From Crocodylus rhombifer (taxonomy: Eukaryota; Chordata; Crocodylia; Crocodylidae): a stretch of 64,000 nucleotides of DNA. Shown piece by piece: positions 15,951-17,039 of the stretch. A model generated the notes under the pieces. The model worked only from the letters and a program-made list of their open reading frames with translations, was not told the DNA's origin and made no database searches. Numbering within the stretch: position 1 is the stretch's first letter; each line of letters opens with the position of its first letter. The translations under genes and the position numbers were made by a program. The stretch is taken from contig JAVSML010024244.1 of NCBI GenBank assembly GCA_038503035.1, forward strand, positions 83,434 through 147,433. The letters are read 5' to 3'.

Positions 15951-17039
15951 TGCCTAGCGGCGCCTCTCCTCCTCCCGGGGGAATAGAAAGTTCCACTATA
16001 CCCGCCCCCACCCCTTCACCAACATCATGGAACGAGCCAGACACCCCTTCCCCCGGCAGGAATGGACCAATCCCAGCGGTTAACAGGGTGCCGAGCCAAA
16101 AGCACCCACTAACAACAGCTGGGAGAGTGGTGGGAGAACACAAAACGGAAACGTTCCACCGCGCATTCGCACTCCACCTCCTCCCAGACAGACATGGAAC
16201 AGCCCAAGCCCCTACTAGGATGCCTAGCTAGAAACATCCACCCACAGTAGCTGGGGGAACGAAGAGAAATAAATATTGCACCGCGCATGCGCCCTCCACC
16301 CCTCCCTCCTTGGCAAGTATAGAATAATCTAAGCCCCCACTCGGATGCCCAGCCGGAAATACCCATTCACCAGGGGGGCAAAGAAAGAAACGTCCCACCG
16401 CGCATGCTTTCTTCACCCCCCTCCCTGGCAAACATGGAACAATCCAAGCAGTCAATAAGGTGCTGAGCCGGAAGCACCCACTCACAGTAGCTAGGAGACT
16501 TAAGAAAGAAATGCGCCCCCCTCCCTGGCAAAGATGGAACAACCCAAGCCCAGCCGGAAGCACCCACCCGCAGTAGTTGTGGGGAAAGAGAAATAACCCC
16601 CCCTTCCCCGGCAAACATGGAACAACCCAAGCCTTCACAAGGAAGCCCATCCGGAAGCACCCATTCACAGTAAGGGGAGAAGGAGAGAAAGAAGCGTTTC
16701 ACTTTGCATGCGGCTTCCACCCCTTCCCCGGCAAACATGGAACAAACCAAGCCTTCACTAGGAAGCCCAGCCGGAAACACCTACTCACAGTAACTGGGAG
16801 GGGAAAGAAACGTTCCACCGCGCATGCGCCCTCCACCCCCCTCCCGGCAAGCGTGGAACACCCCAAATCTCCCCTACGGTGCCCAGCCGGAAGCACCCAC
16901 TCGCACGAAAAGAGGGGGTGTTGGAACAGAACATTCCACCTCTGGGGGGAGGGCAAAACCCCGCGCATGCGCGGCGCGAGACAAAAGGCAGCCGCCCCCC
17001 CTCCCCCCGCAAGCCCCGGTTATAACGCGGCCGCCCCGC
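15934..17039. promoter_or_regulatory. putative bidirectional EEF1D/TIGD5 promoter interval
   Basis: About 1.1 kb of GC-rich DNA separates the candidate first exon of EEF1D (minus) from the TIGD5 start codon (plus). It begins with a perfect TGCGCATGCGC palindrome at 15934-15944 and ends with GCGCATGCGC at 16963-16972; both match the NRF1 core. Between them lies the minisatellite described separately. A TTATAA sequence sits near 17019, about 20 bases before the TIGD5 ATG, probably too close to act as a TATA box. Promoter function is inferred from position and motifs. Confidence 0.6.
16055..16972 (+). repeat. minisatellite of about 8 units carrying NRF1-like and ETS-like motifs
   Basis: Units begin with GGCA(A/G)...ATGGAACA, continue through AGCCGGAAGCACCCACTC and CAGTAGCTGGG, and close with AACGTTCCACCGCGCATGCG and a C-rich CTCCACCCCC run. 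Unit starts are near 16055, 16187, 16312, 16427, 16527, 16610, 16730 and 16846, so unit length is 83-132 bp. GCGCATGC cores survive at 16284, 16400, 16820 and 16963 and are decayed in other units. CCGGAA(G/A) occurs in units 3-8 (near 16350, 16466, 16554, 16649, 16770, 16887). Confidence 0.85.

What the first reader, a model, noticed from the sequence alone, without database searches (positions are those of the whole stretch)
16055..16972. Minisatellite multiplies NRF1-like and ETS-like sites inside the EEF1D/TIGD5 promoter
About eight 83-132 bp units fill the interval between two divergent genes, and most units carry a CGCGCATGCGC-like core, a CCGGAAG core, or both. NRF1 and ETS/GABP are typical of housekeeping bidirectional promoters. 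A tandem repeat that copies a complete promoter module could tune expression by copy number. Units 4 and 5 have lost the NRF1 core but keep the ETS core, so the two motifs decay separately.
Basis: partly seen in the sequence, partly recalled or inferred. Interest (0 to 1): 0.78.

Follow-up and report, generated by a model that had tools for sequence, protein, structure and literature searches.

The report
NRF1-site repeat array between crocodilian genes
In a crocodilian genome the stretch between two neighbouring genes is filled by about eight worn copies of a roughly 115-base unit carrying sites that look like those of a common gene-switch protein, and a few similar arrays sit elsewhere in the same genome, which hints that such sites may seed their own duplication.

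Summary
The array is real: eight units of 83-132 bp at 16054-16972, perhaps preceded by a worn partial unit at 15977-16039 (weak). It lies between EEF1D (minus strand) and TIGD5 (plus strand) of a crocodilian; in its own genome the unit matched only here. Perfect NRF1-type cores lie at 15935, 16283, 16820 and 16963, one single-mismatch core at 16161, far above local shuffles. The ETS-like core is in 6 of 8 units but is not the canonical site. The two motifs are lost separately: units 4 and 5 lost NRF1 by deletion, units 1 and 2 lost the ETS-like core by substitution. Selection is not shown; a CpG-decay test was inconclusive. The same genome holds other NRF1-cored arrays, one upstream of an Exo84-domain gene; 4 of 33 loci tested passed, 29 did not. 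Best reading: tandem duplication seeded at a germline-open NRF1 promoter, leaving a redundant cluster of sites. Seeding and function are inferred; copy-number tuning is untested.

The parts
16054..16972 (+). Tandem array of eight units: u1 16054-16185, u2 16186-16310, u3 16311-16425, u4 16426-16525, u5 16526-16608, u6 16609-16728, u7 16729-16844, u8 16845-16972
15977..16039 (+). Possible worn partial unit left of the array
   Evidence: (score 42; 1 of 300 shuffles), weak: control stretch also scored 33 with 3 of 300
15935..15944 (.). Perfect NRF1-type palindrome on the EEF1D side, outside the units
16161..16170 (.). NRF1-type core, one mismatch (u1)
16283..16292 (.). Perfect NRF1-type core (u2)
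16400..16409 (.). NRF1-type core, two mismatches (u3)
16511..16516 (.). Half-site ATGCGC left by a deletion (u4)
   Evidence: alignment
16820..16829 (.). Perfect NRF1-type core (u7)
16963..16972 (.). Perfect NRF1-type core at the TIGD5 end (u8)
16353..16893 (+). ETS-like CCGGAA(A/G) cores at 16353, 16468, 16554, 16651, 16771 and 16887 (u3-u8)
   Evidence: none is canonical MCCGGAAGY
17040..18764 (+). TIGD5 coding sequence
   Evidence: 99% to Crocodylus porosus TIGD5; CENP-B_N, HTH_Tnp_Tc5, DDE_1
7733..9037 (-). Open frame with the large exon of the long EEF1D isoform
   Evidence: query 7733-8938; best hit 65% to a turtle elongation factor 1-delta
15763..15769 (-). Inferred donor site (C|GTGAGT) ending a non-coding first EEF1D exon
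   Evidence: read from the sequence; inference, no transcript data

Best explanation
A promoter minisatellite. Shown: a roughly 115-bp stretch with an NRF1-type palindrome was multiplied in tandem to about eight copies filling the space between divergent EEF1D and TIGD5; copies then diverged by substitution and deletion; a few other NRF1-cored arrays exist in the same genome. Inferred: duplication was seeded because NRF1-bound promoters are open and prone to breakage in the germline, perhaps more so in crocodilians, which lack PRDM9 and so probably recombine at promoter-like sites. Inferred: the 4 perfect and 2 imperfect NRF1-type sites now form a redundant homotypic cluster on a two-way promoter, in which the outermost perfect cores (15935 and 16963), nearest to each gene, matter most and inner copies add little.
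For: Array and single location; NRF1-type cores above local shuffles; divergent genes. Flank homology between neighbouring NRF1 cores in 4 of 33 other loci at p <= 0.01, 12 of 86 pairs in all with EEF1D counted; clear arrays at L039/L041 upstream of an Exo84-domain gene and at L016/L042. In human data NRF1 sites open in spermatogonia show 7.0-fold enrichment of 5-20 bp insertions, many of them tandem duplications of the motif, linked to motif clusters (PMC8559717, 12 passages seen). Crocodiles lack PRDM9 (PMC5519329, 8 passages).
Against: Units here are 43-132 bp, larger than the 5-20 bp insertions in the human data. 29 of 33 loci with paired NRF1 cores show no flank homology at p <= 0.01. ETS pairs also recur (17 places, some look tandem), so NRF1 may not be special; the total NRF1-core count and a YY1 control did not complete. 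Five of eight units lack a core at <=1 mismatch or the ETS-like core, or both kinds are worn; constraint on the cores is mild (59 of 66 and 49 of 56 cells against 618 of 760). Start sites and NRF1 binding were not observed.
Confidence: 0.5

Rival explanations
1. An ordinary decaying minisatellite in a GC-rich gene gap. The founding unit happened to include an NRF1-type palindrome; the copies have no regulatory role, and only sites outside or at the ends of the array matter.
For: Cores are lost from several units, in u4 and u5 by plain deletion; constraint is mild; the array is CpG-poorer than its flanks; TRF finds other repeats in many of the fetched loci.
Against: The ten best-kept columns, where retained, overlap the NRF1 core (CACCGCGCAT 0.88), and other NRF1-cored arrays exist. 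Neither shows function.
Confidence: 0.33
2. One reading: copy number of an NRF1/ETS module is variable and under selection, and it tunes EEF1D and TIGD5 expression.
For: Position between divergent genes and repeated sites. Promoter repeats with variable copy number that alter expression are known, for example TRIB3 (PMC7425993; listing and start of abstract only).
Against: Copies are old and diverged (mean Jukes-Cantor distance 0.37), unlike a fast-changing repeat; the ETS-like core is non-canonical; many units have lost a core. No polymorphism or expression data.
Confidence: 0.12

Closest known systems
Human TERRA promoters with 61-29-37 repeats (PMC6600276, 12 passages seen)
   Same: Tandem repeats holding putative NRF1 sites in every 29-bp unit, at a CpG-rich promoter
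   Different: There NRF1 binding was shown and the units are 29 bp at subtelomeres; here units are about 115 bp between two protein-coding genes and binding is not shown
NRF1 motif clusters grown by short insertions in the human male germline (PMC8559717, 12 passages seen)
   Same: Tandem duplication that multiplies NRF1 motifs near regulatory regions
   Different: Insertions there are 5-20 bp; here whole units of 83-132 bp (43-62 bp at other loci of this genome)
Promoter VNTRs such as the 33-bp TRIB3 repeat (PMC7425993, listing and start of abstract)
   Same: Minisatellite inside a promoter region
   Different: There copy number varies and changes expression; here neither was testable

Membership tests
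Minisatellite | Head-to-tail copies of a unit of tens of bases or more at one locus | tested here: met
   only match in the genome
VNTR | Copy number varies among individuals | not testable with these tools
   one assembly only; it has no relatives in the collection
Bidirectional promoter | Divergent genes on opposite strands | tested here: met
   TIGD5 plus strand, EEF1D minus strand
Bidirectional promoter | Start sites less than about 1 kb apart | not testable with these tools
   no transcript data; a donor site at 15769 suggests the EEF1D first exon
NRF1-binding repeat promoter | NRF1-type sites inside the repeat units | tested here: met
   4 of 8 units at <=1 mismatch
NRF1-binding repeat promoter | NRF1 occupancy | not testable with these tools
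   no ChIP data
NRF1-binding repeat promoter | Repeat itself is CpG-rich | tested here: not met
   observed/expected CpG 0.55 in 16054-16972, against 0.79 and 0.98 in the flanks and 0.49 in the window
ETS/GABP site array | Canonical MCCGGAAGY (motif recalled) | tested here: not met
   0 matches in the array

The most novel reading that the evidence does not exclude
In lineages without PRDM9, where recombination falls on promoters, germline NRF1 occupancy is a general engine of promoter minisatellites: a set of crocodilian promoters (EEF1D/TIGD5, the Exo84-domain gene and others) carry arrays that grew from one NRF1 site, so that a mutational process rather than selection shaped these control regions.
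Probability: 0.25. Interest if true: 0.72.

Novelty: new member of a known kind. Interest (0 to 1): 0.45.

Why it matters
If NRF1-bound promoters seed their own tandem duplication, clusters of identical sites in promoters need not be adaptive. Crocodiles lack PRDM9 (PMC5519329, passages), so comparing NRF1-cored arrays among crocodilians, birds, turtles and mammals would test whether breaks at promoters drive them. The EEF1D/TIGD5 array is a large, single-locus test case.

Tried and rejected
Dispersed transposable element: not supported. The unit query matched only this locus in its own genome and nothing else in the window above threshold. The tool warns that very common words are skipped, so this is not absolute.

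Known RNA family: 0 matches at gathering score in the window, 4227 Rfam families.

G-quadruplex or i-motif array: the simple four-run pattern, searched in 15901-17040, matches once at 16995-17017, outside the units.

Germline hypomethylation from lack of CpG decay: a first count looked favourable. A LINE comparison was spoiled by badly aligned ends. The corrected one gave a ratio of 0.46 for the array, 0.51-0.71 for four LINE pairs of similar divergence, 1.12 for a pair at 90% identity and 4.24 for a trio at 96%. The measure falls with divergence, so it is inconclusive.

Dating the array: mean Jukes-Cantor distance 0.37 suggests great age, given slow crocodilian evolution (recalled). The paper search was not followed up; no date is claimed.

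Controls not obtained: the total NRF1-core count, a YY1-pair control and a 40-70 bp NRF1-pair scan did not complete. Three-core scans at wider spacing did not complete. Whether the 17 ETS-pair places are tandem was not measured.

Full report
Setting. The window is G000:C8198:83434-147433 of a 2.2-Gb assembly. TIGD5 (17040-18764, plus strand) is 99% identical to Crocodylus porosus TIGD5 and carries CENP-B_N, HTH_Tnp_Tc5 and DDE_1 domains. A minus-strand open frame at 7733-9037 holds the large exon of the long EEF1D isoform: its part 7733-8938 is at best 65% identical to a turtle elongation factor 1-delta, and bird proteins of that name follow. On the minus strand a donor-like C|GTGAGT ends an inferred first EEF1D exon at 15769. 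Start sites are inferred, not observed.

Array. Eight units of 83-132 bp run from 16054 to 16972. Pairwise identity is 0.62-0.83, with u6 and u7 closest. A worn partial unit may precede them at 15977-16039, but the support is weak (1 of 300 shuffles; a control stretch at 15700-15880 gave 3 of 300; E 4.7). In the genome the query, 244 bases of the array, gave 5 matches, all in this array.

Motifs. GCGCATGCGC is perfect at 15935, 16283, 16820 and 16963 and has one mismatch at 16161. Within 16054-16972, 4 matches at <=1 mismatch compare with 0.016 expected, and CCGGAAR gives 6 against 0.45; 0 of 500 local shuffles reached either. On the whole window the ETS-like string is not clearly enriched (9 against 4.6, 7 of 100 shuffles), and the canonical MCCGGAAGY is absent from the array, so the ETS part of the claim is weak. 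Losses run both ways: u4 and u5 keep the ETS-like core and lost NRF1 by deletion (u4 keeps ATGCGC), while u1 and u2 keep an NRF1-type core and lost the ETS-like core by substitution. The two outermost perfect cores share GCGCATGCGCGGCGCG, unlike the inner GCGCATGCGCCCTCC, and lie nearest to each gene.

Constraint. NRF1-core cells match the consensus in 59 of 66, ETS-core cells in 49 of 56, all others in 618 of 760; the windows rank 10 of 113 and 33 of 116. That is mild, and cells are not independent. By pairwise identity the best-kept ten columns are CACCGCGCAT (0.88), overlapping the NRF1 core and scored only on units that retain it; GAAGCACCCA (0.85), TGGAACAACC (0.81) and CTCCACCCCC (0.81) follow closely. 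CpG decay could not decide on germline methylation. Selection on the sites is not shown.

Not alone. A scan for two perfect cores 100-130 bp apart, start to start, gave 37 places at 33 loci, and 0 for the reversed pattern. That control shows that the word is abundant, not that it clusters; the total number of cores was never obtained. Sequence of all 33 loci was fetched. Flanks of neighbouring cores, core excluded, were compared with pairs from different loci: 12 of 86 pairs passed p <= 0.01, where about 1 is expected, in 5 of 34 loci: L016, L029, L035, L039 and EEF1D itself. So 4 of 33 other loci passed and 29 did not. Tandem Repeats Finder (period 20 or more, score 50) called arrays touching a core at L014, L016, L024, L026, L039 and EEF1D, but not at L029 or L035. 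The clearest are L039/L041, with 49-bp units of which two are identical, upstream of a gene with Exo84 domains, which I take for EXOC8, and L016/L042, with four units of 43-44 bp, identity 0.77-0.90. L029/L043 has five stretches of 56-62 bp with identity 0.57-0.77, on unit borders that I set by hand and with an aligner that favours matches, so it rests on the flank test. It lies by a frame that I take for ARGLU1 from recall; Pfam gave no match. A three-core scan gave 5 places: C7290 and C8562 (L029 and L039), C378 and C4975 (no flank homology at p <= 0.01), and a new one, C2870, which Tandem Repeats Finder does not call. A scan with an ETS word gave 17 places (6 and 11 on the two strands; reversed control 1), some tandem-looking in the printed heads, so tandem growth may not be special to NRF1; this was not measured.

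Mechanism. In human data, NRF1 sites open in spermatogonia are among those most disrupted by 5-20 bp insertions (7.0-fold); inserted sequences often repeat the motif, which the authors read as tandem duplication leading to motif clusters (PMC8559717, 12 passages of 33 places). PRDM9 was absent from all birds and crocodiles sampled, and species without it, such as birds and canids, recombine at promoter-like features (PMC5519329, 8 passages); that crocodilians do so is my inference. Repeats with putative NRF1 sites that work as promoters exist at human subtelomeres (PMC6600276, 12 passages of 30 places). Together these favour seeding by a germline NRF1 promoter, with a modest redundant function. 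Unit size (43-132 bp against 5-20 bp) is the main misfit.

Print. Searches combining NRF1 with minisatellite, tandem repeat, VNTR, Peg3/YY1 or bidirectional promoter, homotypic clusters with tandem duplication, and TIGD5 with EEF1D listed no paper whose title or abstract start describes this array. Of the listed papers I opened passages of three (PMC8559717, PMC6600276, PMC9741223; the last gave nothing on this promoter's repeats); the lists were cut and the library lacks most subscription journals.

Noticed in passing
L041:4920-5170 (G000:C8562, about 615.2 kb): 49-bp tandem array with an NRF1-type core per unit, two units identical, about 220 bp upstream of a frame with Exo84 domains.
   Followed up: partly
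L042:4862-5035 (G000:C3952, about 37.6 kb): Four 43-44 bp units with NRF1-type cores just before a GC-rich ATGGCGGCGG stretch.
   Followed up: partly
L047:1430-1700 (G000:C2870, about 7.1 kb): Three perfect NRF1-type cores interspersed with recurring GCGCCCCCTGC strings that resemble a CTCF core (recalled); not called by Tandem Repeats Finder at score 40.
   Followed up: no
G000:C4971:257980-258114, G000:C6110:52577-52710, G000:C4213:93002-93132: Pairs of CCGGAAGTG whose printed heads look like tandem copies; sequence could not be fetched.
   Followed up: no
window 38700-39760, 43100-44500, 47400-48500: Three LINE-like copies (taken for CR1 from recall) 95-96% identical within about 10 kb, with CpG transitions about fourfold in excess.
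   Followed up: partly
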